DNA of 64,000 nucleotides from Sandarakinorhabdus limnophila DSM 17366 (GTDB lineage Bacteria; Pseudomonadota; Alphaproteobacteria; Sphingomonadales; Sphingomonadaceae). The notes beneath the pieces were generated by a model that was not told where the DNA came from, ran no database searches, and worked only from the letters and a program-made list of their open reading frames with translations. Position 1 is the first letter of the stretch. Every line of letters starts with the position of its first letter. A program made the position numbers and the translations under genes. Positions 11,804 through 62,685 of this stretch are shown here, piece after piece. Location of the stretch: NCBI RefSeq assembly GCF_000420765.1, contig NZ_ATVO01000006.1, positions 248,001 through 312,000 on the forward strand. The letters run 5' to 3'.

Positions 11804-12514
11804 ATGTGTGCATGCAACGGCTGTAATTCATCTGGTTTGTCGCGACGCGGTATTTTAGCGGCAGGCGTAGGCGCTCTGGCGCTGGCGGCAGAAGCTCCGG
11901 GAGCACGCGCCCAATCGGCGCGGTCCGCCGAGACCCCGGATGCCGCTTTTGCCCGCCTGATGGAGGGCAATGCGCGCTACGTCTCCGGAGAGATGAATCA
12001 GCGCGACTTCTCCGCGGGGCGCGCCGCGCGCGCTCAAGGTCAGGCGCCGTTTGCCGCCATCTTGGGATGTGCGGATTCACGCGTGGCTCCCGAACTCGCG
12101 TTCGACCAGGGTCCTGGCGAATTGTTCATTGTCCGCGTCGCCGGTAATTTCGTGACGCCCGAAGGGTTGGGTAGCCTCGAGTTTGGCGCCGCGGTGCTGG
12201 GCACCAAGGTGATCATGGTGCTTGGCCATACGAGCTGTGGCGCGGTCAATGCGACGGTTGAGGCCGTTCAAAAAGGCAACAACCTGCCTGGCCACATCGC
12301 GGGCCTAGTGACGGCCATGAAGCCCGGCATCGAGCCTGTCGTGAAAGCCGGTGGAACGGATCTAGAGCAGCGCTCCGTCGTAGCGAACGTGCGGGCCAAT
12401 GTGAGCCGGCTGCAGACCGAGAAGCCGATCCTAGGAGACATGGTGGCCGCCGGTAAGCTCAAAGTGGTCGGCGCCTACTACGATTTGCCCACCGGCAAGG
12501 TTATCCTCGTTTAG
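11804..12514 (+). CDS. Tat-exported beta-class carbonic anhydrase
   Basis: 236 residues. The N-terminus has a twin-arginine signal ('LSRRGILAAGVGALALAAEA') followed by an AQS-type cleavage region, so the enzyme is exported folded with its zinc. Beta-CA motifs: 'ILGCADSRVAPE' gives zinc ligand C89 and the D91-R93 dyad; 'GHTSCGAV' gives H142 and C145. It hydrates CO2 to bicarbonate in the periplasm. The cysteine-rich start 'MCACNGCNSS' precedes the Tat motif and resembles that of other exported beta-CAs. The ribosome-binding site GGGGAG lies 8 bases upstream. The genes on either side are unrelated. Confidence 0.93.
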   Translation: MCACNGCNSSGLSRRGILAAGVGALALAAEAPGARAQSARSAETPDAAFARLMEGNARYVSGEMNQRDFSAGRAARAQGQAPFAAILGCADSRVAPELAFDQGPGELFIVRVAGNFVTPEGLGSLEFGAAVLGTKVIMVLGHTSCGAVNATVEAVQKGNNLPGHIAGLVTAMKPGIEPVVKAGGTDLEQRSVVANVRANVSRLQTEKPILGDMVAAGKLKVVGAYYDLPTGKVILV

Positions 12515-12865
12515 GCATTTGGCTTCGCTGCTCCTGCGGGTGGCGCTGTTGCCCGTCGTTGTTCTGTGCCTCGGTGCGACTTGCGCCGGGCCCAGACGAC
12601 CGCTCAAACGACCGCCAATCTAAAACTGCGACCGCGGCGCGGCGCTCGCAGCTCGTTCACTGGCACTGTCACATTTGTCAAATCGCATCCAAACGCGACC
12701 CCCTTTTCGCCCTCCAAAGGGGGTCGTTTTTGGACGCGATTCTACAAACCGGCACGACTCCGTCATGCCGGAGCCGCTGAATCTTCATAGTGGCGCCTTC
12801 GAACCGTCATGGCGACGAAATGCGGATTGCCTAGCCAGACGTCCGATCAATCGGGGGTCTTTATC
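12515..12865. other. Non-coding stretch between carbonic anhydrase and first TonB receptor
   Basis: Contains the long inverted repeat at 12682-12740 and the ribosome-binding site of the receptor gene. The small reading frames here have no protein-like character. The sequence around the inverted repeat looks to me like debris from the end of an insertion sequence, but I cannot name the element with confidence. Confidence 0.4.
12682..12740. repeat. 25-bp imperfect inverted repeat with terminator-like core
   Basis: The core is a perfect 11-bp stem: CGACCCCCTTT (12696-12706) and AAAGGGGGTCG (12716-12726) around a 9-base loop, followed by TTTTT (12727-12731), which is the layout of a Rho-independent terminator on the plus strand. 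The symmetry extends outward: ATCGCATCCAAA on the left matches the reverse complement of TTTGGACGCGAT on the right with one mismatch. That outer extension is unusual for a simple terminator and suggests a mobile-element end or a processed palindrome. It can terminate the carbonic anhydrase transcript about 180 bases downstream of its stop. Confidence 0.75.
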
Positions 12866-15109
12866 ATGATGCTGCGCGCCATTCTGGCTGGAACGACTGC
12901 CTGTCTTGCCTTTGCTTCGCCAGCCCTTGCCCAAACGCTGGCAGCCGCCAATGCGGATGCCGGGCTCACTGAAATCGTCGTCACCGCCGAACGCCGCGAA
13001 ACCAAGTTGCAGAAAACCCCGATCTCCATTTCGGTCGCCACCGCTGCTGATCTCGAAAACCGCCGGGTGCAGAGCCTGTCTGATCTCGCTGACGGCAGCA
13101 TCCCGTCTTTGCGCATCGCCCCCTTCTTCTCGCGCACCTCGGCCCTCACCGTCGGGATTCGCGGCATCGTGCCGTTCGATGCCAACCAGCCCAGCCGCGA
13201 TGCCACGGTGGGTATCTATGTCGATGGTGTCTTCCTGGGCCGCAGTCAGGGACTGGGCGCAGCGCTGCTCGATATCGAACGGATCGAAGTGCTCAAGGGC
13301 CCGCAGGGCACGTTGTTCGGCCGCAACGCGGTGGGTGGGGCCGTCAATATCGTCACCCGCAAACCAACCGGCGAGTTCGGCGGTCGCCTACTGGGCGGCA
13401 TCCGCAATTTCAACGGCTACAGCGCTGAACTCCATCTCGATCTGCCAGAATGGAATGGCCTTTCGTTCAAGCTGGACGGCATTGCTACCCGTCGCGATGG
13501 CACGGTGGACAACCCGCTGGAAGGTCAGGAGGATTTCAACCGATTCGAACGGCGTGGCCTGCGCGCCTCGGTGCTGTGGCGGCCGTCGAGCGATTTCAGC
13601 GCGCTCTATGCCTTTGATATTTCCTATGACGCGACCACGCCAAATTATCTTCAACTGCTGTCGCGCAGCCCGAACGCTCTGCCCAATTCGCCACTGGTGC
13701 GCGTGCAGGCCCGCAGGGCGCAGACGGCGCTGGTCGGCGTGCCGCAGGAAGACAGTGTGGGCAAGACCAACGGGCACCTGCTGACGCTCGACTGGAAGAT
13801 CAGCGATAGCGTCGAGTTCCGTTCAATCAGCGCCTATCGCGAAGTCGATCAGACCCAGTTCGACAATGGCTTCGGCATCATCGCCTCGGTTTTCCGCCCC
13901 AACGCCAATGTCGTGCGTTACAGCCTCGCCAATCTGGTCCAGCACCAGTTCAGCCAGGAACTGCAGCTGCTCGGCACGTCGGAGCGCCTCACCTGGGTCA
14001 CCGGTCTCTTTTATTATCGCGAAAAGGGCAGCGACGACGCCTGGGCGCCCAACACCATGCGCTGGAATGCCGACGGCAGCGCGCTGACCGTCCTTCCATC
14101 GCTGGTGGCCGGACAAGTCACCCCGTTCCCGGATCGCGCCAGCACGGCGCGCGCCACCAGCTATGCGGCGTTTGCGCAGGCCACCTACACGCCGCCGATC
14201 TTCGATGACCGCCTGAAGCTCACCGCCGGCGGCCGCTACACCCACGACAAGCGGTCGGGCGTGCTGTTCAAGGTGAACGGCGCCGATACCAATTTCACCT
14301 TCGATCGCAGCTACAACCGCTTCGATCCGATGGTGACGTTGGCCTTCGATGCCACCGACGATGTGCATGTCTATGGCAAGTGGGGCACCGCCTATCGCGC
14401 CGGCGGCGCCAACTCGCGCTCGGTCAATTATCGCTCCTTCGATCCGGAAAGCGTCGAAACCTTCGAAGTCGGCTTCAAGTCGGAATTTCTCGACAACAAG
14501 GCGCGGCTGAATGCTGCCTATTACACCACACGCTACACCGACATTCAGATCGATTTTTCCGCCCAGCTCGTCGCCGGTACCACCCGCACCACCATCGAAA
14601 CGGTGAATGCGCCTGGCAATGGCCGCATCCAGGGCCTGGAAATCGATTTCACCGTGGCGCCGATCAAGGGCTTCACCCTCGCCGCCAGCTATGCCCACAC
14701 CAAGGGCAATCTGCCGCTGGCGCAGAACCCCTTCAACAACAACAATTTCCAGCGACCATTCATCGTCTTCACGCCAGATAATGCCTACAGCTTCGCCGCC
14801 GATTTCAACGAGGATGTCGGCTTCGGCGTGGTGCGGGCCCACCTTGATGCCAATATCGCCGATCCGGTACGCGGCCTGCCGGGTGAAGCCACCTTCTCGG
14901 ACCGCAGTGTGCTGGTCAACGGCCGGCTGGCGCTGACCGATATCGAAATCGGCAACGGCACCCGCGCTGAAATCGCGCTGTGGTCGCGCAACCTGCTCAA
15001 TCGCCAGCAGGTCTATCTGCGCAGCGTCGCCGCCCAGGCCGCCACCGGCCCCTATGGCATTTTCAACGAACCGCGCACCTTTGGTGCCGATATCCAGGTG
15101 CGGTTCTGA
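12866..15109 (+). CDS. TonB-dependent receptor (paralogue 1, paired with exported phosphatase)
   Basis: 747 residues from the ATG at 12866, chosen because a signal peptide ('AILAGTTACLAFASPALAQ') starts there and GGGGGT precedes it. A TonB box-like 'LTEIVVTAERRE' follows, then the plug with 'VGIYVDGVFLGRSQG' and 'IEVLKGPQGTLFGRNAVGG', and a 22-strand barrel ending in 'TFGADIQVRF' with the expected terminal Phe. It is an outer-membrane active transporter; the substrate is unknown. It is closely similar along its length to the receptor at 23054-25495 (shared 'IPSL.IAPFFSR'). A PTP-like exported phosphatase gene begins 16 bases after the stop, suggesting import coupled to dephosphorylation. Confidence 0.93.
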   Translation: MMLRAILAGTTACLAFASPALAQTLAAANADAGLTEIVVTAERRETKLQKTPISISVATAADLENRRVQSLSDLADGSIPSLRIAPFFSRTSALTVGIRGIVPFDANQPSRDATVGIYVDGVFLGRSQGLGAALLDIERIEVLKGPQGTLFGRNAVGGAVNIVTRKPTGEFGGRLLGGIRNFNGYSAELHLDLPEWNGLSFKLDGIATRRDGTVDNPLEGQEDFNRFERRGLRASVLWRPSSDFSALYAFDISYDATTPNYLQLLSRSPNALPNSPLVRVQARRAQTALVGVPQEDSVGKTNGHLLTLDWKISDSVEFRSISAYREVDQTQFDNGFGIIASVFRPNANVVRYSLANLVQHQFSQELQLLGTSERLTWVTGLFYYREKGSDDAWAPNTMRWNADGSALTVLPSLVAGQVTPFPDRASTARATSYAAFAQATYTPPIFDDRLKLTAGGRYTHDKRSGVLFKVNGADTNFTFDRSYNRFDPMVTLAFDATDDVHVYGKWGTAYRAGGANSRSVNYRSFDPESVETFEVGFKSEFLDNKARLNAAYYTTRYTDIQIDFSAQLVAGTTRTTIETVNAPGNGRIQGLEIDFTVAPIKGFTLAASYAHTKGNLPLAQNPFNNNNFQRPFIVFTPDNAYSFAADFNEDVGFGVVRAHLDANIADPVRGLPGEATFSDRSVLVNGRLALTDIEIGNGTRAEIALWSRNLLNRQQVYLRSVAAQAATGPYGIFNEPRTFGADIQVRF

Positions 15110-15125
15110 TCCGAAAGCCGATCCG

Positions 15126-16175
15126 ATGACCAAGCAACTTGCCCTGATCGCACTGGGCCTTGTAGCCGCCGCGCCAGCCCATGCGCTGACCGAAGCCAGC
15201 GTCGAACGGATCGACGCCGAAACCCTGGTGGTGCGCTGGACAGCCAAGCGCCCGGTGGACGTGCTGGTGAGCGAAGCGCCAGACGCGGCTGCCCGTGCTG
15301 CCACGCTGGCTTCGGCGGCAGACGGCGATGGCGAACATCGCCTCGGCGTGCCAGCCGGCCAGCGCCGCTATGTGCTGCTAAGGGAACGCGGCACGGGCAA
15401 GACGTTGCGCGTCGCCGAACGGCTGCTGCCGCTGGAGGCCGGCTCCAATTTCCGCGACATCGGCGGCTATCAGGGCGCCGGCGGCAAACATGTGCGCTGG
15501 GGCCTGATCTATCGTTCGGGCGGGCAGCCCCTGCTCACTGCCGCCGATCAGGCCCAGATCGCCCGGCTGCGCCTTGCCAATCTCGTCGATCTGCGTTCGG
15601 CCGAAGAACGCCGCCTGGCCCCGACCCGCATCGAACAGGTGCGTTACAATGCGGTGGGCTATTCGATGGCGGCCCTGATGCCGGCCGGTGGTGTGGCGGC
15701 GGTGCGCAATGGAAGTGCCATCTATCGCGGTTTCCCCACCCTGCTCGCCCCGCATCTGCGGCTGGTGTTCGATCGCGTGCTGAATGAGCGCGGGGCACTG
15801 GCCTACAACTGCTCCGCCGGGCAGGATCGCACCGGCTTTGTCACCGCCATGATCCTGTCAGCCCTGGGCGTGCCGCGCGCCACCATCATGGCCGATTATC
15901 AGCTTTCCACCCAATTGCGCCGGCCGCAGTTCGAAATGCCCAGGCTGGATCCGGCGGTGGTTGCTAATGATCCGGTGGCGCGCATGTTTGCCGGCTATCA
16001 GACACCGCAGGCCGCCGCGCCCACGCCCCTGGTGGAAGCCGATGGCACGCCCTTCCTCGCCGGCGCCTTTGCCGAGATTGAAGCAAGATACGGCACCGTA
16101 GAGGCCTATCTCGAACGCGAAGCCGGCCTGACCCCGGCCCGGCGAAAGGCGCTGCAGGCGGCCTATCTCGAATAA
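15126..16175 (+). CDS. Exported PTP-like (Tyr_phosphatase_3) phosphatase, paralogue 1
   Basis: 349 residues from the ATG at 15126, where a signal peptide starts ('LALIALGLVAAAPAHA'). An Ig-like N-terminal segment (about residues 22-100) precedes the catalytic domain: 'SNFRDIGGYQGAGGKHVRWG', 'IYRSGGQPLLT', 'NLVDLRSAEER', and the P-loop 'YNCSAGQDRTGF' with nucleophile C229 and R235. The family hydrolyses phosphotyrosine, phosphoserine or phosphoinositides; exported members may act on organic phosphates. It lies 16 bases after the TonB receptor stop, so the two are almost certainly co-expressed. A paralogue sits at 21983-22846 next to a paralogous receptor. Confidence 0.88.
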   Translation: MTKQLALIALGLVAAAPAHALTEASVERIDAETLVVRWTAKRPVDVLVSEAPDAAARAATLASAADGDGEHRLGVPAGQRRYVLLRERGTGKTLRVAERLLPLEAGSNFRDIGGYQGAGGKHVRWGLIYRSGGQPLLTAADQAQIARLRLANLVDLRSAEERRLAPTRIEQVRYNAVGYSMAALMPAGGVAAVRNGSAIYRGFPTLLAPHLRLVFDRVLNERGALAYNCSAGQDRTGFVTAMILSALGVPRATIMADYQLSTQLRRPQFEMPRLDPAVVANDPVARMFAGYQTPQAAAPTPLVEADGTPFLAGAFAEIEARYGTVEAYLEREAGLTPARRKALQAAYLE

Positions 16176-16188
16176 GGCAGGGCCATTG

Positions 16189-16506
16189 TCATCCCTGTCG
16201 GCGTCCCGAGGTGCGATTGCGACTGGCAACCACGGCCGCCAGCCACGTTGCCAGTACCGGGCCAAGCCAATCGGCCACCTGTTCCGGCTGCACCCATAGC
16301 CGGGCATCCAGCGCACCCCACCACGGCAGATTGGCACGCAATCCATCGCCGAACTGTTCGATCCAGCGATATTCCGCCTGTGCCACCTCTCGCCCCAGGA
16401 AATAGCCGCTGGCCAGCGCCGCTCCGATCCACCAATTGCGGGTGGTGAGGCCGATCACGGCCTGGATGGCCACCGCGGCCAACGCATGTTCGACAAGATT
16501 CATCAT
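16189..16506 (-). CDS. Small conserved membrane protein of unknown function
   Basis: 105 residues from the double-ATG at 16504-16506; an upstream start at 16563 would add a non-hydrophobic 19-residue tail. It contains two hydrophobic helices: '[15 protein letters not shown]' with '[20 protein letters not shown]' in the first half, and '[15 protein letters not shown]' near the end. Between them is '[11 protein letters not shown]'. The pattern 'GR.[10 protein letters not shown]' recurs in small sphingomonad and phage-associated membrane proteins, but I can give no function. It converges on the phosphatase gene with 13 bases between them. Confidence 0.65.
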
Positions 16507-16681
16507 CGGCTCATCGGCTTCCTGTGCTGGGGCCACAGCTTGCCCGATGCCACGCGCAAGCAAAAGCGGCCCGCCCTACGCAATCGTCCGCTCTTTCCTT
16601 TTTGCCAGTGGCCAAGCAGGGTCAGGCGTGACAGCCTGTGCGCTGCAACATGCAATAATCCACACACGGGGAAGGTGCGCC

Positions 16682-17902
<1,221 letters not shown>

Positions 17903-17916
17903 GGCTGCAAGGCGGC

Positions 17917-17946
17917 GGGGAAGGGCTTGCACCACAAGCCCTCCCC
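17917..17946 (+). terminator. Hairpin after the acyl-CoA dehydrogenase gene
   Basis: GGGG (17917-17920) and GGGCTTG (17923-17929) pair with CAAGCCC (17935-17941) and CCCC (17943-17946), with a small asymmetric bulge. It starts 14 bases after the stop codon. No T-run follows, so it may act as an mRNA end stabiliser or a weak terminator. Confidence 0.5.
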
Positions 17947-18000
17947 TGCTACCCGCGCCATCTGCCGAAGGGGCGCTCAGGCGCTTCATTTCCCTGGTGT

Positions 18001-18087
18001 GCGGCCATGGCGGAATTGGTAGACGCGCAACGTTGAGGTCGTTGTGGCCGAAAGGCCGTGGAAGTTCGAGTCTTCTTGGCCGCACCA
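18001..18087 (+). tRNA. tRNA-Leu (anticodon GAG)
   Basis: 87-base class II tRNA. Acceptor GCGGCCA (18001-18007) pairs with TGGCCGC (18077-18083), discriminator A, encoded CCA (18085-18087). The anticodon stem CAACG/CGTTG frames the loop TTGAGGT, so the anticodon is GAG (Leu, codon CUC). The long variable arm is TGGCCGAAAGGCCG. The T-loop is GTTCGAGTC. Confidence 0.97.
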
Positions 18088-18197
18088 TTTGGGAACAATA
18101 CCGGGCCGGCTTTGCCGGATAGGTTGGTAAGCGCACAATCGAGCGGTTATCTCCAAATTGTAATCGCTCTGCCGCACTTCATGTTTAATGGACCGCG

Positions 18198-19523
18198 ATG
18201 TTCATGGGTGTGCAGGGGCAAGAATCGCGCGGGCGGGGGCCGCCATGGTTTGGTATGGCCGGAGATTTGCCGCGGTTGCTGCTGGGCGGTTTGGCAGCCT
18301 TTGCGGCCTACTTTGCCATGTACGCATTCCGCAAACCGCTGGCCGTGGCAGGCTGGACCGATGTCGGCTTTCACCCCTTCGGCCTTGATTACAAAACGGC
18401 GCTCGTGATCGTGCAGGTGGTGGGATATGCCGCCTCCAAGCTCATTGGCATCAGGGTGATGGCTGAATTTGGCCGCATAGGCCGAGCCAGCGTCATCTTC
18501 GGCCTGATCAGCATTTCATGGGCCTGCCTGATTGCCTTTGCGCTGCTGCCGCCGGTGCTTGGTCTGGCCTGTATCTTAATGAACGGCTTTGCACTTGGGA
18601 TGATCTGGGGGCTGGTGTTCAGCTATCTGGAAGGGCGGCGCACCACCGAACTTCTGGGTGCCATGTTGTGCGGGGCGTTCATCCTGGCCTCTGGTGTCGT
18701 CAAGTCGGCCGGTGCGCTGTTGTTGCAGGAAGGCGTACCGGAACATTGGATGCCAGCTGCAACCGGCCTGCCGTTTTTCCCGGTGCTGATTCTGTCTTTA
18801 TGGCTGTTGGAGCGGATGCCGGCGCCATCGGCCGCCGACGAGGCTGAGCGAACACCGCGCCGCCCTATGGACAAGACCGAGCGGGCGGCCTTTCTGCAGG
18901 CGCATGGGCTACCGATGGCGCTGTTGACGGCCAGTTATATCGTGCTCACCGCCATGCGCGATTTCCGGGACAATTTCGCGGCCGAACTCTGGACGGCGTT
19001 AGGCATGGGCGGGTCGGCAGCGGTGTTTTCCGCCAGCGAGTTGCCGGTGGCGGTGATCGCGCTCGGTGCACTTGCCGGGCTGATCCTGGTGCGCGACAAC
19101 GTGAAGGCAATGTTGGCGATGCACGGGGTGATCATGCTGGGCGGCGCGCTTTTGGGGCTGGGCACATTGGCTTTCCAGGCCGGCCTACTTGGCCCGATGC
19201 CGTGGATGATTCTGGCCGGTGCAGGGCTTTATCTGGCCTATCTACCGTTCAACGCCATGCTGTTTGATCGCATGATTGCCGTGCTGGGCCGAACGGCCAA
19301 TGCCGGTTTCCTGATCTACATTGCCGACACTGCTGGGTATGCGGGCAGCATCGCCCTTCTGCTGTGGCGCAGCCTGTTTGCCCCTGCCGCGGACTGGGTG
19401 CCCTTGTTCATCGCATTTGCCCATGTCGCAGCCGTGCTCATTATCGTGCTTACCGGTATTTCGGCCCTGTATTTCTGGCGCCGGGCCGGCCAAAAACGGG
19501 AGATTCCTGATTGTCTGACGTGA
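18198..19523 (+). CDS. DUF5690-type MFS-like membrane transporter, phosphonate cluster
   Basis: 441 residues with about 11-12 hydrophobic helices, e.g. 'LLLGGLAAFAAYFAMYAF' then 'RKPLAVAGW', and 'GMIWGLVFSYLEGRRTTELL'. The central 'YIVLTAMRDFRDNFAAELW' and terminal 'YIADTAGYAGSIALL' fit the DUF5690 family, distant from the major facilitator superfamily. The following FAD oxidase gene overlaps its 3' end by 13 bases, then phnX overlaps that one, so it probably imports the phosphonate substrate of this cluster (2-aminoethylphosphonate or an N-methyl derivative); this role is inferred from context. Alternative starts exist at 18204 and 18255. Confidence 0.8.
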   Translation: MFMGVQGQESRGRGPPWFGMAGDLPRLLLGGLAAFAAYFAMYAFRKPLAVAGWTDVGFHPFGLDYKTALVIVQVVGYAASKLIGIRVMAEFGRIGRASVIFGLISISWACLIAFALLPPVLGLACILMNGFALGMIWGLVFSYLEGRRTTELLGAMLCGAFILASGVVKSAGALLLQEGVPEHWMPAATGLPFFPVLILSLWLLERMPAPSAADEAERTPRRPMDKTERAAFLQAHGLPMALLTASYIVLTAMRDFRDNFAAELWTALGMGGSAAVFSASELPVAVIALGALAGLILVRDNVKAMLAMHGVIMLGGALLGLGTLAFQAGLLGPMPWMILAGAGLYLAYLPFNAMLFDRMIAVLGRTANAGFLIYIADTAGYAGSIALLLWRSLFAPAADWVPLFIAFAHVAAVLIIVLTGISALYFWRRAGQKREIPDCLT

Positions 19524-20632
19524 TCGTGGTGGGCGCCGGTATTGTCGGTTTGGCCCATGCGTTGGCTGCGGTACGCGCTGGCGCGCGGGTGATGGTGGTC
19601 GACCGGGACGCGCGCGCGAATGGCGCCTCCATCCGCAATTTCGGCTTCATCACCGTCACCGGGCAGGAACAAGGCCGGGTGTGGCGCCTGGCAAGGCGCA
19701 GCGCCGCCATCTGGCGGAACGTGGCACCCGCCGCTGGCATCCGCATCGATCAGGAAGGTCTGCTTGTTGTGGGGCAGCGCCCTGAATCATCGGCGGTCCT
19801 CGATGCCTTCATGGCCACTGAAATGGGAGAAGGGTGCCGACGCCTGAACCCATCTTCGGTCGCCGATCTCTGCCCGCAGGCCCATGCGCCTGCTGGCGCC
19901 ATCCTCAGCACGCATGATCTGCGCGTCGAATCGCGCGAAGCGCTGCCCCGACTGGCCGCCTGGCTGGCCGAGGTGCATGGCGTGCGCTTCCGTTTCGGCA
20001 GCGCCGTAGTGGGTATGGAAACCGGCCGTGTCGCGTTGGCCAATGGTGAAGCGCTGGCGGCCGATGCCATTTTCGCCTGCCCTGGCGATGACTGGGCCTC
20101 GCTGTTCCCGTCGATTTATGCCGAGGAATCAATCACTCGCTGCAAGCTGCAGATGCTGCGCCTTGCGGCGCCCGGCTGGCGGCTTCCGGCCCCGGTCATG
20201 AGCGATCTCAGCCTGGTCCGCTACCTCGGCTATGCCGCGCTGCCCGAAGCTGCAGCGTTGAAGGCCCAGCTGGAACAGGAACAAGCCGAAGCCCTTGGTT
20301 GGGGCATCCATCTGATTGTGGTGCAGAGCGCCGATGGGAGCCTGGTGGTGGGTGACAGCCATGAATATGGCCCGACACCTGACCCCTTCGGTCGTGCCGA
20401 CATCGATGCCGCCATGCTTCGCCAGTATGAGGCGGTTCTGGGCGCGCCTCCTGCGGTGGCCGAACGCTGGACCGGCACCTATGCCTCGGCCGCCGGCCAC
20501 AGCATCGTGCGCTCACCGATGCCCGGCGTGCACTTGGTGGTGGTGACCAGTGGCACCGGTGCTTCCACCGGGTTCGCGCTGGCCGAAGAAACGGTGAACG
20601 GCGTGTTCGGCAATAGGGAGCCAATCTGTTGA
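19511..20632 (+). CDS. TIGR03364-type FAD-dependent oxidoreductase of phosphonate catabolism
   Basis: 373 residues. It starts at TTG 19511 immediately before the dinucleotide-binding loop 'VIVVGAGIVGLAHALAAVRAGARV'-like region (only the GxGxxG core is cited: 'GAGIVG'), typical of DAAO-like amine oxidases. 'NGASIRNFGFITVTGQEQG' and the C-terminal 'TSGTGASTGFALAEE' fit the TIGR03364 clade, defined by its neighbourhood with PhnX. Such enzymes oxidise 2-aminoethylphosphonate or its N-methyl form to phosphonoacetaldehyde, the PhnX substrate. It overlaps the transporter gene upstream by 13 bases and phnX downstream by 4 bases. I assign no gene symbol because naming in this clade varies. Confidence 0.85.
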   Translation: MSDVIVVGAGIVGLAHALAAVRAGARVMVVDRDARANGASIRNFGFITVTGQEQGRVWRLARRSAAIWRNVAPAAGIRIDQEGLLVVGQRPESSAVLDAFMATEMGEGCRRLNPSSVADLCPQAHAPAGAILSTHDLRVESREALPRLAAWLAEVHGVRFRFGSAVVGMETGRVALANGEALAADAIFACPGDDWASLFPSIYAEESITRCKLQMLRLAAPGWRLPAPVMSDLSLVRYLGYAALPEAAALKAQLEQEQAEALGWGIHLIVVQSADGSLVVGDSHEYGPTPDPFGRADIDAAMLRQYEAVLGAPPAVAERWTGTYASAAGHSIVRSPMPGVHLVVVTSGTGASTGFALAEETVNGVFGNREPIC

Positions 20633-21414
20633 GCGCAAATCTGCAGGCTGTGGTGTTCGACTGGGCGGGCACGATGATCGATTTCGGCAGCCGCGCGCCA
20701 GTGGTGGCGCTGCTCAAGCTGTTTGATGGCTTTGATGTGCCGATCAGCGAGGCCGAGGCCCGGGCCGACATGGGGATGGCAAAGCGCGACCATATCGCCG
20801 CCATTCTCGCCCAGCCGCGTGTGGCTGCCGCCTGGGCCGCGCGCTATGGCAAGACCCCTGACGTGACAGACGGTGACCGGCTGTTTGCCCGCATTACCCC
20901 TCTGATGCAGCCCGCCGCACGCGAAACCGCCGTGCTGATCCCCGGCGCTGCCGACGTGGTGCGCCAGTTGCGCGGACAAGGCGTGAAGATCGGTTCGTGC
21001 ACCGGCTACACGCGGGAAATGATGGCCGATATCCTGCCCGCCGCCGCCGCGCAGGGTTATACCCCTGATTGCCTCGTATGCGCCGGTGACACGGCCTTCG
21101 GTCGGCCTTCGCCATTGATGCTGTGGAAGAACATGGTGGAACTGGGGGTATGGCCAGCCGCCGCTGTGGTTAAGGTGGACGACGCTGCGGTGGGCATAGC
21201 CGAGGGGCGCAGCGCCGGCACTTGGACGGTGGGTGTGGCCGCCAGTGGCAACAGCGTTGGCCTGTCGGCCGAGGCGCTGGCGGTGCTTCCAGTGGAGGAG
21301 CGGGCCGATCGTATCGCATCTGCCCGGGCCGAACTGCTGGCGGCCGGCGCCCATGTGGTGATCGATACCGTGGCCGATCTGCCGGCAGTGTTGACCGGCT
21401 TTGCTTACGGCTGA
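20629..21414 (+). CDS. phnX: Phosphonoacetaldehyde hydrolase
   Basis: 261 residues; HAD superfamily. D11 in 'VVFDWAGTMIDFG' is the nucleophile; the W-A-G-T sequence is the PhnX-specific variant. K52 in 'MGMAKRDHI' matches the Schiff-base lysine of the cap domain. 'GSCTGYTREMM' is HAD motif II and 'VVKVDDAAVGIAEG' carries the motif IV acids. It cleaves phosphonoacetaldehyde to acetaldehyde and phosphate. Start is TTG, overlapping the oxidase stop by 4 bases (TTGA-type coupling). Its 3' end overlaps the convergent HD oxygenase gene by 10 bases. Confidence 0.96.
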   Translation: MSANLQAVVFDWAGTMIDFGSRAPVVALLKLFDGFDVPISEAEARADMGMAKRDHIAAILAQPRVAAAWAARYGKTPDVTDGDRLFARITPLMQPAARETAVLIPGAADVVRQLRGQGVKIGSCTGYTREMMADILPAAAAQGYTPDCLVCAGDTAFGRPSPLMLWKNMVELGVWPAAAVVKVDDAAVGIAEGRSAGTWTVGVAASGNSVGLSAEALAVLPVEERADRIASARAELLAAGAHVVIDTVADLPAVLTGFAYG

Positions 21415-21965
21415 GCAGAAACGCGCAGCAGGCTGGCCAGCAGAGGGCGCCAACTGTCGAGCGGGGGCACCGCACAGTGGGGATCCTTGGCAGCATCATC
21501 CCAACGACGCAGCGTCACGGCATCGGCTGCGTGCGGCTGCGCGCAGAAACGGGCCTGCTCTTCGATGTCCATCGGCCCGCCCTGCAGCACAAGGCTGAGG
21601 ATGGAGGCGGCGCTGAGACCGGCTTGGTATGCTGGATCGACGGCGCACAGATAGCGCTTGGCCGCGACATGCAGGCGAACGGGTTCGGTGACCGCCGGCC
21701 CGAACCAGTGGGCCAGCAGGTCTGCACCCCGCTGTTCGTGGCGGGCATCAACGGTGTCATGCTCAGCCGCCGCTCCCGCGTCATCCAGTAACTGGCCGAT
21801 GTCGTGCAGCAGCGCGGCAGCGACGAGTGCAGGGGCAGCACCCGCCGCCTGTGCAAGGGCTGCGCACTGCACGGCATGGGCATATTGCGTCACGTGCTCA
21901 CCGTAATGCTGCATGCCGGCGGACCGGAATGGCGCCAGCAACTGGTCGAGAGCAGCGTCGGTCAT
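21405..21965 (-). CDS. Phosphonate-degradation HD-domain oxygenase (PhnZ-like)
   Basis: 186 residues from the ATG at 21965 (a start four residues earlier is possible). The pattern 'YGEHVTQYAHAVQCA' followed by 'AALLHDIGQLL' (H54-D55) is the HD-domain mixed-valent diiron oxygenase signature; later 'EHDTVDARHEQRGADLL' supplies further His ligands, and a C-terminal 'RRWDDAAKDP' supplies the last Asp. PhnZ cleaves 1-hydroxy-2-aminoethylphosphonate to glycine and phosphate. The usual partner hydroxylase PhnY is not seen here. The gene lies tail-to-tail with phnX, overlapping by 10 bases, and 17 bases after the stop of the phosphatase gene there is none on this strand; it ends the convergent pair. 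Confidence 0.85.
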   Translation of the reverse strand: MTDAALDQLLAPFRSAGMQHYGEHVTQYAHAVQCAALAQAAGAAPALVAAALLHDIGQLLDDAGAAAEHDTVDARHEQRGADLLAHWFGPAVTEPVRLHVAAKRYLCAVDPAYQAGLSAASILSLVLQGGPMDIEEQARFCAQPHAADAVTLRRWDDAAKDPHCAVPPLDSWRPLLASLLRVSAQP

Positions 21966-21982
21966 GGCTGTTGCCACCCGGC

Positions 21983-22846
21983 TCAGCGTTCTGTGTAAAG
22001 CCTCACCAGTTCCCGCCGCTCGGTCAGGTTCAAGCCCAGCTCGCCGGCCAGATAGCCATCCACACCGCCTTTGTGGGCGTCCATCACGGCGAACACCGCT
22101 TCGATATAGGCGCGATCGACGCCCATGATGGCCTGCAGCGCTTCGGGCGGCATCCGGCGGAACATGGCCGATTGTGGATCATTGCCACCGGTCAGTTTGC
22201 CGGGATCGAAATAGCGGTTGGAGAGCAGGTAATCGCCGATCACGTCTTGACGCCCGACGCCCAGCGCGGTCAGCAGCAGGGCGGCGGCCACGCCGGTCCG
22301 ATCCTTGCCGGCAGAGCAGTTGAAGGCGAGCGGCGCGCGGCCGGCCAGCAGTTCGCCAAACATCCGGCGGTACTGGCCGTTGAACTGCTTCAGGATCTGC
22401 GGATAGGTGGAGGTCATTGCCGCGCGCGCCTGCTCGCCGGAGGGCAGTGTGGGGCCGAACAGGCGGACGATGGCGCTCATGTCATTCTGATAATCATCGG
22501 CGAGCACCACCGGCGCCTTGCCGGCCGGCCAGTTGACCGGTGCCGACGTCCGTTCCCGCACGTCGCGGAAGTCGCAGACGGTGCGGATGCCACGGCCGGC
22601 AAGTGTGGCAAAGTCCGCCGGTGTCAGGCTTGCCATCGCGCCAGAACGGAACAACAGGCCCCACCGGACGCTGCGCCCGTCGGCGGCCCTGTAACCACCC
22701 AGATCGCGGAAATTATTGCCGCCCTGCAGCGGCAGCAGCCGATCATGCGGCGCCGCCACAGCTTGCGGCGGCGCCACGGCCTTTGCCACGACGGGCGCCA
22801 GCGGCAGCAGCATGGCAATCAGGATCAGCGGCAGTCGCATGTGCAT
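21983..22846 (-). CDS. Exported PTP-like (Tyr_phosphatase_3) phosphatase, paralogue 2
   Basis: 287 residues with a signal peptide ('LILIAMLLPLAPVVAKA'). Catalytic domain: 'GNNFRDLGGYRAADGRSVRW', 'FRSGAMASLT', 'TVCDFRDVRERT', and P-loop 'FNCSAGKDRTGV' with C177 and R183. It lacks the Ig-like segment of the paralogue at 15126-16175, which explains the shorter length. It reads away from the paralogous TonB receptor at 23054, with a shared 207-base promoter region, and the HD oxygenase gene lies 17 bases downstream on the same strand, so phosphatase and HD oxygenase may form one operon. Substrate unknown; dephosphorylation of imported organophosphate is an inference. Confidence 0.88.
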   Translation of the reverse strand: MHMRLPLILIAMLLPLAPVVAKAVAPPQAVAAPHDRLLPLQGGNNFRDLGGYRAADGRSVRWGLLFRSGAMASLTPADFATLAGRGIRTVCDFRDVRERTSAPVNWPAGKAPVVLADDYQNDMSAIVRLFGPTLPSGEQARAAMTSTYPQILKQFNGQYRRMFGELLAGRAPLAFNCSAGKDRTGVAAALLLTALGVGRQDVIGDYLLSNRYFDPGKLTGGNDPQSAMFRRMPPEALQAIMGVDRAYIEAVFAVMDAHKGGVDGYLAGELGLNLTERRELVRLYTER

Positions 22847-22892
22847 TGTGGTTCTCTCGGCTCATCAACGCGCCGGCGTTAGCCCGCCCTTG

Positions 22893-22908
22893 TGTCAGAG
22901 CAATGACA
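22893..22908. promoter_or_regulatory. Candidate operator in the phosphatase/TonB-receptor divergent region
   Basis: TGTCA (22893-22897) and TGACA (22904-22908) form a small inverted repeat with a 6-base spacer in the 207-base divergent region between phosphatase 2 and receptor 2. The position suits a shared regulator, but a 5-bp half-site can occur by chance and I know no specific protein for it. Confidence 0.25.
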
Positions 22909-23053
22909 AGCGGAGCGAGCAACCAAATCGCAAGATTTTTGCCGCGAAAGCTTAACTGGAAAGCCAATTTTTATTTACACACCACCGGTACGCCCACGGT
23001 TGGCATACCGCGATCGGCTGCAAGGCCGGCGCATTCAAAACAGGGGCAGCATC

Positions 23054-25495
23054 ATGAAAATCCGTCGGGCCAATCTGGCCACCACATCGCTTGTCGCATT
23101 GCTCGTCGCTCAACCTGCGCTGGCAGCTGATGCGGCCGCTGCCGCAAATGCCGAGGCAGAGGGTCTGGCCGAAATCGTGGTCACCGCGCAAAAGCGCAGC
23201 GAAAATCTGCAGAAGACCCCGATCGCCATTGCCGTGCTGGACAGCGCCGTGCTGGCTGACCGCCACGTGGTGTCGCTGCTCGATCTTGGCGATGGCGCCA
23301 TCCCGTCGCTGAAGATTGCACCCTTCTTCTCGCGCCCCGGCGTGCTCGTGATCAACATCCGCGGCGTCGGCGTGATGGCGGACAGCAACCAGCCGGCCCG
23401 CGATCAGGGCGTCGGCGTTTATGTTGATGGCGTCTATCTCGGCCGCGCTCAGGGCTTGGGCGCTGCGCTTTATGATGTCGAGAATATCGAAGTGCTGAAG
23501 GGCCCGCAGGGCACCCTGTTCGGCCGCAACACCATGGGCGGCGCGGTGAGCATCGTTACCAAGAAGCCCAGTGGCAAGTTCAAGTCCAACACCACTTTGG
23601 GCGTTGGCAACTACAACAGCTACAACGCGGTCACCCACATCGATCTGCCGGAAGTCGCCAACATCAGCTTCAAGATCGACGGCATCCTTTCGCGTCGCGA
23701 CGGCATGGTGGACAACCCTTTGCAAGGCCAGAACGATTTCAACAGCTTCGACAAGCGCGGCATCCGTCTCGAAGCGTTGTGGCGTCCGACTGACAATTTC
23801 AGCGTCGATGTCGCAGTCGACAACAGCTATGATGCCACCAGCACCATGTATCTGCAGCAGGTTACCCGCCCGCTGGGCCTTCCGGCCACGGCCACTGCGC
23901 CGGCGATCGCGCCCAACTTCGTGGCAGGGATCAACCCGGTGTCGGCAACCCGGCTCAGCGCCGCCAAGGTGGGCGTGCCGCAGCCGCTGAGCATCGGCAA
24001 GACCGAAGGCTATCGCCTTGGTATGGAATGGGACGCGACTTCCACGCTGAAGTTCAAGTCGATCACGGCCTATCGCGTGATGAGCCAGACCCAATGGGAC
24101 AATGGCTCGGCGGATTCGACGCTGTCGATCGCGCCGACTGCGGCCAATCCCAATGGCAACTTCCTGATTGCCACCGCCGGCGGGCCTTATCAGTTTGCCC
24201 GGATCAGCGTGGCGCCATTCCGCCAGAACCAACTCAGCCAGGAACTGGAAGCAGTCGGCGAAATCGGCCGCTTGAAGTTCGCTGCCGGCGCCTTGTTCTA
24301 TCAGGAAAAGGTGCAGGACAACGCCCAGGCGTTCAACACCAATGTCGTCACGGATGCCGCCGGCACCACCTTCGCCCAGCGCCAGATCGATTTCAACACG
24401 CAGGTCGTCCAGCGCGCCAGCTATGTGCGGGTCACCAGCGTTGGTGTGTTCGGCCAGGGTATCTACACGCCGCCGATTGCTGACGACAAGATCCACCTCA
24501 CCTTGGGTGGTCGTTGGACGCGTGACCAAAAGCAGGGCAATCTTTTCACCATCAACGGGGCCCTCCCGATTGTGCCGGTGAATGGCGTCAACGTCTCTGC
24601 CAAGATCCCGCTTGATCAGGCCTGGAGCCGCTTCGATCCGCTGGTCACCCTGGCTGCCGAAGTGACAGACGATATCCTGGTCTATGGCAAGTGGAGCACC
24701 GGTTATCGTTCGGGCGGCGCCAGCTCGCGCTCGCTGACCTACCGCTCGTTCAATCCAGAATCCGTGTCGATCTTCGAAATTGGCGGCAAGGCCCAGTTTT
24801 TCGACAACCGGGTGCGCTTCAACTTCGCGGCGTTCACGGGGACGTACAAGGACATCCAGCTCGATTTCAGCGGCCTGTATGAAGACGTGATCAACGGTGT
24901 CCGCGTCACCACCACCCGCACCACCACCGACATCATCAATGCGCCGGGCACCGGCCGGGTGAAGGGTTTCGAGCTTGAGTTTCTGGTCAACCCGGCCAAG
25001 GGCCTGACCCTGTCGGCCAGCTATGCCAAGAACATTGTCACCATCCCGCCGACGCTCAACCCGTTCCCGCAGACGGGCGGCGTGCTGATACCCGTGCCGG
25101 TGCCGATCTATCAGGTCTACACGCCGGAAAACACCGCCAGCGTCTCGATCGACTATGATCTGCCGATCAAGGACTTCAACCTGCACGCCCACATTGATGG
25201 CAATTATGATTCGGGCTTCTATGCCAACTACACCGACGTGACCTATGATCCGGTCACCCGCGCGGTGCGCTTTGCCCAGCCGAAGGGCGATTCAGGCTTC
25301 ATCGTCAACAGCCGCCTGGCTCTTGCAGATATCCCGCTGGGCGGCGGCGATGGCAAGCTGACGCTGGCAGTGTGGGCCCGCAACCTGCTCAACTCCCAGT
25401 TCCTGTTCTGGAAGTCCGGCAGCCCGCAAGGCGGCATCAGCGGCTTCTTCAACGACTTCCGCACCTATGGTGTGGAAGCCAATGTGCGCTTCTGA
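23054..25495 (+). CDS. TonB-dependent receptor (paralogue 2)
   Basis: 813 residues from the ATG at 23054, where the signal peptide begins ('LVALLVAQPALAADA'). TonB box-like 'LAEIVVTAQKRSENL', plug motifs 'VGVYVDGVYLGRAQG' and 'IEVLKGPQGTLFGRNTMGG', barrel ending 'TYGVEANVRF' with terminal Phe. It shares 'IPSLKIAPFFSR', 'QGLGAAL' and the barrel motifs 'KWSTGYRSGGASSRS' with the receptor at 12866-15109, so the two are paralogues. It diverges from an exported phosphatase that is the paralogue of the other receptor's partner. Function is TonB-energised uptake across the outer membrane, possibly of a phosphorylated compound. Confidence 0.93.
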   Translation: MKIRRANLATTSLVALLVAQPALAADAAAAANAEAEGLAEIVVTAQKRSENLQKTPIAIAVLDSAVLADRHVVSLLDLGDGAIPSLKIAPFFSRPGVLVINIRGVGVMADSNQPARDQGVGVYVDGVYLGRAQGLGAALYDVENIEVLKGPQGTLFGRNTMGGAVSIVTKKPSGKFKSNTTLGVGNYNSYNAVTHIDLPEVANISFKIDGILSRRDGMVDNPLQGQNDFNSFDKRGIRLEALWRPTDNFSVDVAVDNSYDATSTMYLQQVTRPLGLPATATAPAIAPNFVAGINPVSATRLSAAKVGVPQPLSIGKTEGYRLGMEWDATSTLKFKSITAYRVMSQTQWDNGSADSTLSIAPTAANPNGNFLIATAGGPYQFARISVAPFRQNQLSQELEAVGEIGRLKFAAGALFYQEKVQDNAQAFNTNVVTDAAGTTFAQRQIDFNTQVVQRASYVRVTSVGVFGQGIYTPPIADDKIHLTLGGRWTRDQKQGNLFTINGALPIVPVNGVNVSAKIPLDQAWSRFDPLVTLAAEVTDDILVYGKWSTGYRSGGASSRSLTYRSFNPESVSIFEIGGKAQFFDNRVRFNFAAFTGTYKDIQLDFSGLYEDVINGVRVTTTRTTTDIINAPGTGRVKGFELEFLVNPAKGLTLSASYAKNIVTIPPTLNPFPQTGGVLIPVPVPIYQVYTPENTASVSIDYDLPIKDFNLHAHIDGNYDSGFYANYTDVTYDPVTRAVRFAQPKGDSGFIVNSRLALADIPLGGGDGKLTLAVWARNLLNSQFLFWKSGSPQGGISGFFNDFRTYGVEANVRF

Positions 25496-49450: not shown

Positions 49451-50293
49451 ATGACGGAGGTTTGCACAACAGCCATGCCGACGCGGGTCCGTTTCTCCCT
49501 CACCGAGCCAGCAACCAACAGTGCCCCCTTGCTGTTCGGCGTACCATTCAACACGCCCGAACAATCGGTGATCGCGATCGATGTTGTGGCGGGAAACTGC
49601 CTTGATCGGGTGACCGCAAGCAATAGCGGGCAGAGCGCCTTGCTGATCGAACCGGAGGGTGGCTGTGCCGTTGTTGACGTGGACTTCAGCGATGCGGCCG
49701 GGATGGCGCCGGCATGGCTGTTCGGGTCGACCGGCGGCGCCCACGAACAACCATCAGTGGCCTTGGCAGAACTGATCGACGGTTTGGCCGGCACCACATG
49801 CGGGCAGGCCCGTGTGAACAGGATCATCGAACATATCGACGCGCGCTTCGTTTATGGTCGCCGCGAACGCGGGCTGGGCGATGGCGAAGCTGCGATGCCG
49901 GCGCTGGTTTGCGACACGCACGCAGGAACCTGTGTCGACACGCACAGCTATGCCGTTGCGGCGATGCGGGCGGGCAATATGGACGCCGCGTACATCAGCG
50001 GCGTGTTCTTCAAGGCCGGGCAAAGCCTTTCGCGCCCGGGCCATTGCTGGATCGCGGTACAGGTGGATGGGGCTGCGCAATATTGGGATGTCTCGCACCA
50101 TCTTAAATATGGCCTTGGGCCATCTCAGCCCGGCTACAATCCGTTGCCCGGGACACGCTTTGCGCTGACGGCCGGCCGCGATCTGCGGTTTGAACTGCCT
50201 GGCCGGAGCCTCGCGGTCAGCATTCTCAAGGGGTTTGTTGCAGCGGATGGCGAACAGGGATTGGCGCTGCCAACCACGGCAAGCCTTATCTGA
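49451..50293 (+). CDS. Transglutaminase-like cysteine protein upstream of phnD
   Basis: 280 residues. Transglutaminase-core triad: C161 in 'HAGTCVDTHSYAVAAMRAG', H198 in 'RPGHCWIAVQV', D213 in 'AQYWDVSHHLKYG'. Residues 1-100 form a beta domain often found before the core in bacterial members ('RVRFSLTEPATNSAPLLFG'). No export signal, so cytoplasmic. These proteins are usually proteases or amide-cleaving enzymes. It is 173 bases upstream of phnD on the same strand; membership of the phosphonate transcription unit is possible but unproven. Confidence 0.82.
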   Translation: MTEVCTTAMPTRVRFSLTEPATNSAPLLFGVPFNTPEQSVIAIDVVAGNCLDRVTASNSGQSALLIEPEGGCAVVDVDFSDAAGMAPAWLFGSTGGAHEQPSVALAELIDGLAGTTCGQARVNRIIEHIDARFVYGRRERGLGDGEAAMPALVCDTHAGTCVDTHSYAVAAMRAGNMDAAYISGVFFKAGQSLSRPGHCWIAVQVDGAAQYWDVSHHLKYGLGPSQPGYNPLPGTRFALTAGRDLRFELPGRSLAVSILKGFVAADGEQGLALPTTASLI

Positions 50294-54087: not shown

Positions 54088-54103
54088 ACGGGGAAGGGTC
54101 TCC

Positions 54104-56852: not shown

Positions 56853-56857
56853 CGGCT

Positions 56858-61554: not shown

Positions 61555-61557
61555 GGT

Positions 61558-62654: not shown

Positions 62655-62685
62655 AACGAATATATCCCAAGGAACACCAAAACCT

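What the first reader, a model, noticed from the sequence alone, without database searches (positions are those of the whole stretch)
12866..25495. Two paralogous pairs of TonB receptor plus exported PTP-like phosphatase bracket a PhnX-type phosphonate module
Seen: the receptors at 12866 and 23054 share long stretches, and each is next to an exported Tyr_phosphatase_3 protein (C229/R235 and C177/R183). One pair is co-directional with a 16-base gap, the other divergent. Between them lie DUF5690, FAD oxidase, phnX and HD oxygenase genes. Inference: the pair is a duplicated uptake unit in which a phosphorylated or phosphonylated compound is imported and dephosphorylated in the periplasm. I know of no described system of this make-up.
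Basis: partly seen in the sequence, partly recalled or inferred. Interest (0 to 1): 0.75.

Follow-up and report, generated by a model that had tools for sequence, protein, structure and literature searches.

The report
TonB receptors paired with exported phosphatases
This bacterium carries two conserved gene pairs, each an outer-membrane import gate beside a secreted phosphatase, next to genes that break down phosphonates, which together look like a way to scavenge organic phosphorus compounds, although the exact compounds are unknown.

Summary
Both TonB receptors, both exported Y_phosphatase3 (PtpB-type) enzymes and the DUF5690/PbfD/PhnX/Phn-HD module are at the stated places. The pairing is real and wide: in the window's genus 13 of 14 such phosphatase genes adjoin a TonB receptor, and such pairs occur in other Alphaproteobacteria, Gammaproteobacteria and one Prevotellaceae contig.

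The pairs are not a local duplication. A and B are separately inherited types: four congeners carry pair A without DUF5690, and one carries the B module, as far as read (98.7-98.8% DNA identity), without phosphatase A. Pair A is merely near the phosphonate module; phosphatase B lies 5 bases from Phn-HD on the same strand.

An organophosphorus role is suggested by neighbours elsewhere: a PhnD/PhnE importer beside a C-P lyase cluster, phytase, PhoA, PhoD, PAP2, PhnX/PbfD. DUF5690 looks like a distant organophosphate antiporter. Substrate and phosphate regulation are not shown.

Closest precedent: Flavobacterium phosphate utilisation systems. The full-text listings I saw describe no receptor plus PtpB-type pair.

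The parts
12866..15109 (+). TonB-dependent receptor A (747 aa, signal peptide by eye)
   Evidence: PF07715 Plug and PF00593 barrel; 80-82% identical receptors (fragments, except L199) beside phosphatase-A orthologues in L199 and four congeners
15126..16175 (+). Exported PtpB-type phosphatase A (349 aa): FnIII-like N domain + Y_phosphatase3, CSAGQDR loop, C229/R235
   Evidence: PF13350 181.6 bits; AlphaFold2 pLDDT 90.4; Foldseek best 8dhj/8dhi C. difficile PTP and 1ywf M. tuberculosis PtpB, plus FnIII domains lower in the list
16679..17902 (+). Acyl-CoA dehydrogenase; neighbour, part of the unit doubtful
   Evidence: PF00441/PF02770/PF02771; follows phosphatase A also in congener L333 (95% identical), not in L332, L334 or L335
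18001..18087 (+). tRNA-Leu(gag) separating pair A from the phosphonate module
   Evidence: ARAGORN
18198..19523 (+). DUF5690 membrane protein, predicted organophosphate-antiporter-like MFS permease (start may be 18255)
   Evidence: PF18943 463.8 bits; AlphaFold2 pLDDT 84.8; Foldseek best SLC37A4/G6PT; GlpT R45, K46, K80 columns invariant R, K, K in 14 of 14
19511..20632 (+). FAD-dependent oxidase of the PbfD type (TIGR03364)
   Evidence: 409.2 bits, cut-off 285.1; PbfD1 of A. baumannii is annotated as a TIGR03364 member (PMC10590968, passage)
20629..21414 (+). PhnX phosphonoacetaldehyde hydrolase
   Evidence: TIGR01422 343.5 bits, cut-off 220
21405..21977 (-). Phn-HD phosphonate degradation oxygenase (TIGR03276)
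   Evidence: 224.7 bits, cut-off 214.6; GTG start 5 bases, ATG start 17 bases after the phosphatase B stop
21983..22846 (-). Exported PtpB-type phosphatase B (287 aa), CSAGKDR loop, C177/R183
   Evidence: PF13350 211.9 bits; 98.9% identical copy in congener G599 between Phn-HD and receptor B
22847..23053 (.). Divergent intergenic region of pair B; holds TGTCA-N6-TGACA (22893-22908), a weak Pho-box-like match (3 mismatches)
   Evidence: function unproven
23054..25495 (+). TonB-dependent receptor B (813 aa)
   Evidence: PF07715; 54-62% identical receptors beside such phosphatases in L207, L225, L251, L274, L347
44504..47494 (-). Third TonB receptor (TonB-Xanth-Caul, TIGR01782) of the same region
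   Evidence: 550.4 bits, cut-off 310; relatives adjoin PtpB-type phosphatases in L091, L092, L327, L330, L331; a 44% identical relative lies two genes from a phytase gene in L199
47553..48971 (-). Purple-acid-phosphatase-like metallophosphatase, exported by eye, upstream partner of the third receptor
   Evidence: PF16656 + PF00149; same homology cluster as genes in phn modules L084, L085, L087
50506..64000 (.). Phosphonate ABC importer (phnD-like, unnamed gene, phnE, phnE, phnC), then C-P lyase genes incl. phnJ 59495-60442, phnI 60439-61554, phnG 62175-62588; cluster runs off the window
   Evidence: NCBIfam TIGR01098, TIGR01097 x2, TIGR02315; Pfam PhnJ 462.5, PhnI 527.1, PhnG 159.1 bits; gene-by-gene match to the cluster in congener L318

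Best explanation
Each pair is an organophosphorus acquisition unit. The TonB receptor pulls a phosphorylated organic compound across the outer membrane, and the partner PtpB-type phosphatase, exported to the periplasm (by eye a lipoprotein in some relatives), removes phosphate. Pair A is an orphan unit of this kind. Pair B belongs to the phosphonate module: phosphatase B is probably co-transcribed with Phn-HD, and the module's inner-membrane step is DUF5690, a distant organophosphate:phosphate-antiporter-like permease that delivers an aminoalkylphosphonate to PbfD and PhnX, giving acetaldehyde, phosphate and amine. Shown here: gene content, conservation of the pairing, exported class, PtpB fold, intact catalytic residues, OPA-like fold and motif of DUF5690. 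Inferred: import, dephosphorylation, substrate class, co-transcription, and any functional link of pair B to phosphonates. Inositol phosphates or other phosphomonoesters are the likeliest substrates of the phosphatases, because PtpB-type enzymes are reported (recalled) to act on phosphoinositides and a relative of each pair type lies near a phytase gene.
For: Conserved pairing: 13 of 14 PF13350 matches in 24 genus genomes adjoin a TonB receptor; 15 of 29 strong receptor-A relatives in 199 family genomes have a PF13350 match within 0.5 kb, the window's two included (coordinates); 29 of 68 loci with a called phosphatase in the GTDB scan. 59 receptor-phosphatase adjacencies by 57 phosphatase genes, 55 co-directional, 47 with the receptor first. 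Phosphorus neighbours: L091+L318, a congener with phosphatase, receptor, kinase-like, PhnD, Phosphonate-bd, PhnE, PhnE and a C-P lyase cluster; L199 and L225, phytase near pair-A-type and pair-B-type units; L327 alkaline phosphatase PF00245; L208 PhoD; L092 PAP2; L060/L061/L199 calcineurin-type phosphoesterase; S. soli L210/L317 with DUF5690-PhnX-PbfD within about 5 kb. B module kept in congener G599 with identical spacing. DUF5690 present in all 10 of the 199 family genomes with TIGR03364; in 20 class-level modules read, DUF5690 and a TonB receptor were found together in 2 and neither was found in 18.
Against: No transport, activity or expression data. None of the 9 other family loci fetched around TIGR03364 shows a phosphatase of this family. 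Most pairs elsewhere have no recognised phosphorus gene within five genes: 47 of 55, a test that is also biased towards finding them because several of its profiles were built from the same loci. Several pairs adjoin TetR-type, GPH sugar symporter or ECF/FecR genes, which suits carbon uptake. No convincing Pho box, also not at pstS. The residue before the catalytic C is N, not H, in 14 of 18 aligned phosphatases. The OPA reading of DUF5690 fails at two of five GlpT columns and profile comparison is weak.
Confidence: 0.55

Rival explanations
1. The pairs take up phosphorylated or anionic carbon sources (phospho-sugars, phosphoglycans, other esters); phosphate is a by-product and expression follows the carbon substrate, not phosphorus status. 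Closeness to phosphonate genes in this window is incidental.
For: Next to pairs, a homology group in 10 loci of which the two members scanned are TetR-type, a group in 3 loci of which the member scanned is an MFS_2/GPH sugar symporter, and ECF sigma and FecR groups in 5 loci (one member of each scanned); a plasmid cassette with receptor, phosphatase, receptor and MFS between identical IS6 copies; a glycosyltransferase next to the units of L060/L061/L199 and an epimerase near that of L206.
Against: Phosphatase, phytase, C-P lyase and PhnX/PbfD neighbours in several independent loci; position of both window pairs in a phosphorus-rich region.
Confidence: 0.25
2. The phosphatases are signalling or housekeeping enzymes that act on phosphorylated periplasmic or surface proteins or glycans and only ride along with receptor genes.
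For: Pfam calls the family tyrosine phosphatase; the fold matches M. tuberculosis PtpB and a C. difficile PTP. Most members without an export signal have no receptor neighbour (86 of 95).
Against: Association of exported members with TonB receptors, with receptor-first order and often short gaps; receptor and phosphatase distances correlate over 50 pairs (Mantel r 0.39, 0 of 2000 permutations as high, not corrected for species relatedness).
Confidence: 0.12
3. Pair B and the phosphonate module are neighbours by chance; phosphatase B was inverted next to Phn-HD and has no role in phosphonate use.
For: Divergent order of pair B differs from its relatives L225, L251, L274, L347, which are receptor-first and co-directional; none of the 9 other family TIGR03364 loci fetched shows such a phosphatase.
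Against: 5-base gap and shared strand with Phn-HD; the arrangement kept at 98.7-98.8% DNA identity in a second genome that has no second PF13350 match; independent proximity in S. soli.
Confidence: 0.3

Closest known systems
Phosphate utilisation systems (Pus) of Flavobacterium johnsoniae and kin (PMC8115612; abstract and passages seen)
   Same: TonB-dependent transporters co-localised with phosphomonoesterases, phosphodiesterases and phosphonate-degrading enzymes; a phytase gene grouped with a TonB transporter gene
   Different: Bacteroidetes, SusCD-type with a SusD lipoprotein cap, and shown to be induced by phosphate depletion. Here no SusD was found, the phosphatase is of the PtpB type, and nothing is known about expression
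PbfD/PhnX branch of 2-aminoethylphosphonate degradation (PMC10590968; passages seen)
   Same: TIGR03364 oxidase next to phnX; TIGR01422 and TIGR03364 cut-offs met
   Different: 'TonB' and 'DUF5690' have zero occurrences in that paper's main text; exported phosphatases were not looked for there
AepP, an organophosphate-antiporter-family 2AEP permease of Pseudomonas putida (PMC8316502; passages seen)
   Same: Single-protein permease beside AEP catabolic genes; OPA-like fold and R/K/K residues inferred for DUF5690
   Different: DUF5690 is its own Pfam family, gives no NCBIfam match, no PDB sequence match at E <= 1, and only weak MFS_1 matches (9 of 14 members; best E 0.00026)
PtpB-type phosphatases (M. 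tuberculosis PtpB 1ywf, C. difficile PTP 8dhi/8dhj)
   Same: Fold and catalytic C/R; profile match E 5.5e-33 and 9.8e-53
   Different: Exported, FnIII-like extra domain in A, receptor partner; N instead of the H of the usual H-C-X5-R motif (motif as given in PMC6355987, passage)
Caulobacter crescentus ElpS/Cc0171 (PMC2996285; search listing and passages seen)
   Same: An extracellular lipoprotein produced under phosphate starvation whose gene co-occurs with a TonB receptor gene
   Different: The receptor there is reported as constitutive, and 'tyrosine' has zero occurrences in the main text

Membership tests
Y_phosphatase3 (PF13350) | Score over the curated cut-off of 22.2 bits | tested here: met
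   181.6 and 211.9 bits
Y_phosphatase3 (PF13350) | Catalytic C and R of the C-X5-R loop | tested here: met
   C229/R235 and C177/R183; both invariant in 18 of 18 aligned relatives
Y_phosphatase3 (PF13350) | Phosphatase activity | not testable with these tools
   no assay
PhnX phosphonatase (TIGR01422) | Equivalog cut-off | tested here: met
   343.5 against 220 bits
PbfD-type oxidase (TIGR03364) | Curated cut-off | tested here: met
   409.2 against 285.1 bits
Phn-HD oxygenase (TIGR03276) | Curated cut-off | tested here: met
   224.7 against 214.6 bits, narrowly
Phosphate utilisation system (Pus) | TonB transporter co-localised with phosphohydrolases | tested here: met
Phosphate utilisation system (Pus) | SusD-like lipoprotein partner | tested here: not met
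   no SusD family among the ten proteins of 11804-25495 scanned
Phosphate utilisation system (Pus) | Induction by phosphate depletion | not testable with these tools
   Pho-box scan inconclusive
Organophosphate:phosphate antiporters (OPA; for DUF5690) | Match to an OPA family model | tested here: not met
   no NCBIfam match at E <= 0.001; the library holds at least one OPA model, TIGR00881 (seen)
Organophosphate:phosphate antiporters (OPA; for DUF5690) | MFS fold closest to OPA structures | tested here: met
   Foldseek rank 1 SLC37A4 and many G6PT chains in the top 50, but GLUT and other MFS chains score nearly as well
Organophosphate:phosphate antiporters (OPA; for DUF5690) | Substrate-site residues R45, K46, K80, H165, R269 of GlpT (roles recalled) | tested here: inconclusive
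   R45, K46, K80 matched in 14 of 14; H165 column is F and R269 column is L or F, with an invariant R254 four residues away

The most novel reading that the evidence does not exclude
A two-gene outer-membrane system, TonB receptor plus exported PtpB-type phosphatase, is a widespread and undescribed route of organophosphate (perhaps inositol phosphate) acquisition in Alphaproteobacteria and beyond. In the window it is coupled to a complete outer-membrane-to-cytoplasm phosphonate route whose inner-membrane step is DUF5690, a new organophosph(on)ate permease family. PtpB-type enzymes, known to me mainly from pathogens, would then be nutritional enzymes in most of these bacteria.
Probability: 0.4. 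Interest if true: 0.75.

Novelty: new variant of a known kind. Interest (0 to 1): 0.58.

Why it matters
If true, it names a role for a set of TonB receptors and PtpB-type phosphatases that carry only generic annotation, gives a first functional hypothesis for DUF5690 (no paper in the searched library names it), and makes outer-membrane uptake of organic phosphorus and phosphonates in sphingomonads directly testable. In the listings of my searches on TonB receptors and phosphorus the only systems of this kind I saw were the Flavobacterium Pus loci and the Caulobacter ElpS/Cc0171 pair.

Tried and rejected
Local duplication of one unit: rejected, because the trees and congeners show two separately inherited types. 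Strict co-evolution of partners: rejected as a general rule. Receptors close to B occur with A-type phosphatases (L064, L065, L067, L207) and a receptor close to A occurs with a B-type phosphatase (L059); B with B also occurs (L225, L251, L274, L347). Phosphate regulation by a Pho box: a scan of the own genome found 127 matches with up to 3 mismatches against 25 in the reversed control. I read the 15 places with 1-2 mismatches by eye: no pst/pho gene recognised; three lie 78-114 bases upstream of genes that look like TonB receptors; five lie inside called genes; pstS has only 4-mismatch sites. Left open. Enrichment of phosphorus genes near pairs: 8 of 55 phosphatases beside a receptor against 4 of 135 phosphatases alone and 0 of 32 receptors alone. 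The window and L082-L090 were left out of that count. The profiles were partly built from the same loci, so the test is biased; without the loci that gave profiles (L091, L092, L095, L096, L098, L199, L208) L060, L061 and L225 remain among the pairs and L151 and L270 among the others, and the L060/L061 family was itself chosen after it was seen there. I therefore use these neighbours as examples and not as statistics. Genomic island by base composition: the G+C profile of 8000-32000 shows no sharp step (0.60-0.69). Gene calls outside the window come from a simple home-made caller, so starts and some small genes are unsure; 12 of 80 GTDB-scan loci gave no called phosphatase. L302 and L313 lack a called TIGR03364 gene although they were fetched for one. 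I fetched 20 of the 22 non-own class-level TIGR03364 places. A plasmid search with phosphatase A gave 17 records; I looked at the surroundings of 4: three have the receptor directly upstream, the fourth (L346, not annotated) shows no match to the window receptors beside the phosphatase.
Full report
WHAT IS THERE. Receptor A (12866-15109) is followed after 16 bases by phosphatase A (15126-16175). Receptor B (23054-25495) stands divergent from phosphatase B (21983-22846). Between them lie an acyl-CoA dehydrogenase gene, a tRNA-Leu, DUF5690, a TIGR03364 FAD oxidase, PhnX and a Phn-HD oxygenase. The receptors are 46% and the phosphatases 35% identical. The genome search found no other gene of the phosphatase family. 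Phn-HD and phosphatase B share a strand and are 5 bases apart if the GTG start is used, 17 if the ATG is used. PhnX and Phn-HD converge and overlap by 10 bases.

THE REGION. The window holds a third unit of the same make-up: a TonB-Xanth-Caul receptor (44504-47494) and a purple-acid-type phosphatase with a signal-like start (47553-48971). From 50506 on there is a phosphonate ABC importer, then C-P lyase genes: PhnJ, PhnI and PhnG match Pfam at 462.5, 527.1 and 159.1 bits, and the genes match, one by one, a cluster of a congener.

THE PAIR IS A CONSERVED UNIT. In 24 genomes of the genus, 12 have the phosphatase family, with 14 matches, and 13 of these adjoin a TonB receptor. In 199 family genomes the family is present in 106. 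Many of these genes are short forms without an export signal or receptor neighbour. Of 124 called genes, 29 have a long N-terminal extension with a hydrophobic start; 19 of those adjoin a receptor, against 9 of the 95 others (Fisher p 5e-9); some of the 9 have starts that my caller probably misplaced. That sample includes loci chosen by receptor matches. In the subset fetched only by phosphatase, 10 of 100 adjoin a receptor against 19 of 696 other genes. Strong relatives of receptor A number 29 in 17 of 199 genomes, and 15 of the 29, the window's two included, have a phosphatase match within 0.5 kb (coordinates). In 68 of them my gene caller found the phosphatase, and in 29 it adjoins a receptor, including Phenylobacterium, Caulobacter, Hyphomonas, Ponticaulis, Microbulbifer, Bowmanella and a Prevotellaceae contig. 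Over the loci examined up to there are 59 adjacencies by 57 phosphatase genes in 55 loci, 55 co-directional and 47 with the receptor first. The window's pair B is one of only four that are not co-directional.

NOT A LOCAL DUPLICATION. Receptor A groups with L059 and L060/L061 (support 91), receptor B with L064, L065 and L067 (support 100). Phosphatase A groups with L091 (98), phosphatase B with L062, L105 and L120 (96) and L059 (97). Four congeners carry pair A (phosphatase 79-83% identical; receptor fragments 80-82%) and have no DUF5690 match. One congener, G599, carries the stretch from the acyl-CoA dehydrogenase into receptor B (window 16844-24231, the part read) at 98.7-98.8% DNA identity with the same spacing but has only one phosphatase match. 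Pairs of B-type receptor with B-type phosphatase occur elsewhere (L225, L251, L274 and a Sphingomonas sanguinis plasmid, L347), so pair B is a real pair type that has been rearranged here; partner exchanges also occur.

LINK TO PHOSPHORUS. In congener G106 the sister of phosphatase A in the family tree (58% identical) is followed by a receptor of the third kind, a small kinase-like gene, PhnD, a Phosphonate-bd protein and two PhnE genes, beside a C-P lyase cluster. In L199 the nearest relative of pair A (82% and 79% identical) stands between a calcineurin-type phosphoesterase with a glycosyltransferase on one side and, on the other, a third-kind receptor, an unnamed gene and a beta-propeller phytase. 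In L225 a pair of B type stands next to another receptor and a phytase. Further neighbours are an alkaline phosphatase PF00245 (L327), PhoD (L208) and PAP2 (L092). In Sphingobium soli a pair lies within about 5 kb of a receptor-DUF5690-PhnX-PbfD cluster. Against this, most pairs have no recognised phosphorus neighbour, and the only count I made is biased by its seeds. Other pairs adjoin TetR-type, sugar symporter or ECF/FecR genes.

THE PHOSPHONATE MODULE. TIGR03364 is present in 10 of 199 family genomes and DUF5690 in 12, including all 10. Of nine loci fetched around the other TIGR03364 genes, eight hold a TonB receptor and none shows a phosphatase of this family; two of the nine are short. 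L084-L089 carry phospholipase C, purple-acid phosphatase or PAP2 genes instead, L082 and L083 a sulfotransferase gene. The two DUF5690 genomes without TIGR03364 have DUF5690, a receptor and a phospholipase C, or DUF5690, a receptor, a metallophosphoesterase and a GDPD. In 385 class genomes 23 have TIGR03364, the own one included. Of the 20 other places I read, 18 show neither a TonB receptor nor DUF5690, and two show both. DUF5690 is therefore likely the inner-membrane partner of the receptor-type modules. Its predicted structure (pLDDT 84.8) is an MFS fold whose best PDB match is the glucose-6-phosphate antiporter SLC37A4, with GLUT and other MFS chains close behind. Residues aligned with GlpT R45, K46 and K80 are invariant in 14 of 14, whereas the H165 and R269 columns are not matched. 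Profile comparison with GlpT, UhpT and UhpC aligns the same first-helix motif but is weak (probabilities of 3.5% or less); GarP, FucP and NepI do not align there.

THE ENZYMES. The predicted structure of phosphatase A (pLDDT 90.4) is a PtpB-type phosphatase with an FnIII-like domain in front. Sequence search finds C. difficile PTP and M. tuberculosis PtpB. C, D and R of the active loop are invariant in 18 of 18; the residue before C is N in 14 of 18 and H in 4. The aligned A group has CSAGQDR and the aligned B group CSAGKDR. Signal peptides and lipoboxes were judged by eye.

HOW IT MOST LIKELY WORKS. Receptors import phosphorylated organics and the phosphatases dephosphorylate them in the periplasm. 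Module B adds import of an aminoalkylphosphonate through DUF5690 and its breakdown by PbfD and PhnX. The gene facts are shown; the transport, the substrates and the regulation are inferred. The main rival is uptake of phosphorylated carbon sources independent of phosphorus status.

WHAT IS KNOWN. The closest described kind is the phosphate utilisation systems of Flavobacterium, TonB/SusCD transporters with phosphatases, induced by phosphate depletion (PMC8115612; abstract and passages seen). In the present loci I found no SusD, and the enzymes are PtpB-type. TIGR03364 oxidases include PbfD (PMC10590968; passages), and an OPA-type AEP permease, AepP, is known (PMC8316502; passages). Of my ten full-text searches, seven combined TonB receptors with phosphatase or phosphonate terms. 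No listed title or abstract start describes a TonB receptor paired with a PtpB-type phosphatase; the lists (20 of 46; 10 of 11; 10 of 47) were capped and I read passages of few papers. No paper names DUF5690. Subscription papers are mostly not in that library.

VERDICT. Observation confirmed; interpretation partly supported; a new variant of a known kind.

Noticed in passing
window 50506-64000: Phosphonate ABC importer and C-P lyase genes (PhnJ, PhnI, PhnG by Pfam); with PhnX the same window holds two different phosphonate routes.
   Followed up: partly
window 49475-50293: Transglutaminase-like gene (PF01841) beside the importer; a 36% identical homologue lies inside the phn cluster of congener L318 (11732-12553).
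   Followed up: partly
L345 (Sphingobium yanoikuyae plasmid pF1) 4544-13984: Two identical IS6-family copies (868 bp, 100%) flank a receptor-phosphatase pair, a second receptor and an MFS gene: a possible mobile uptake cassette; the first receptor starts right after the IS and may be cut.
   Followed up: partly
L084-L089, L319-L321: TonB receptor modules with DUF5690 carry phospholipase C, PI-PLC, GDPD or metallophosphoesterase genes, which suggests (phosphono)lipid head groups as substrates.
   Followed up: partly
L281, L282, L288 (own genome): Three of the 15 best CTGTCAT-N4-CTGTCAT matches lie 78-114 bases upstream of receptor-like genes outside the window, a possible shared regulator site.
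   Followed up: no
L344 (Sphingobium herbicidovorans plasmid pMSHV) 7911-8974: The phosphatase gene beside the receptor is annotated as two overlapping pieces.
   Followed up: no
window 22893-22908: Inverted repeat TGTCA-N6-TGACA between phosphatase B and receptor B, a possible operator.
   Followed up: no
window 26274-27536: Gene matching glycolate oxidase subunit GlcF downstream of receptor B, on the opposite strand.
   Followed up: no
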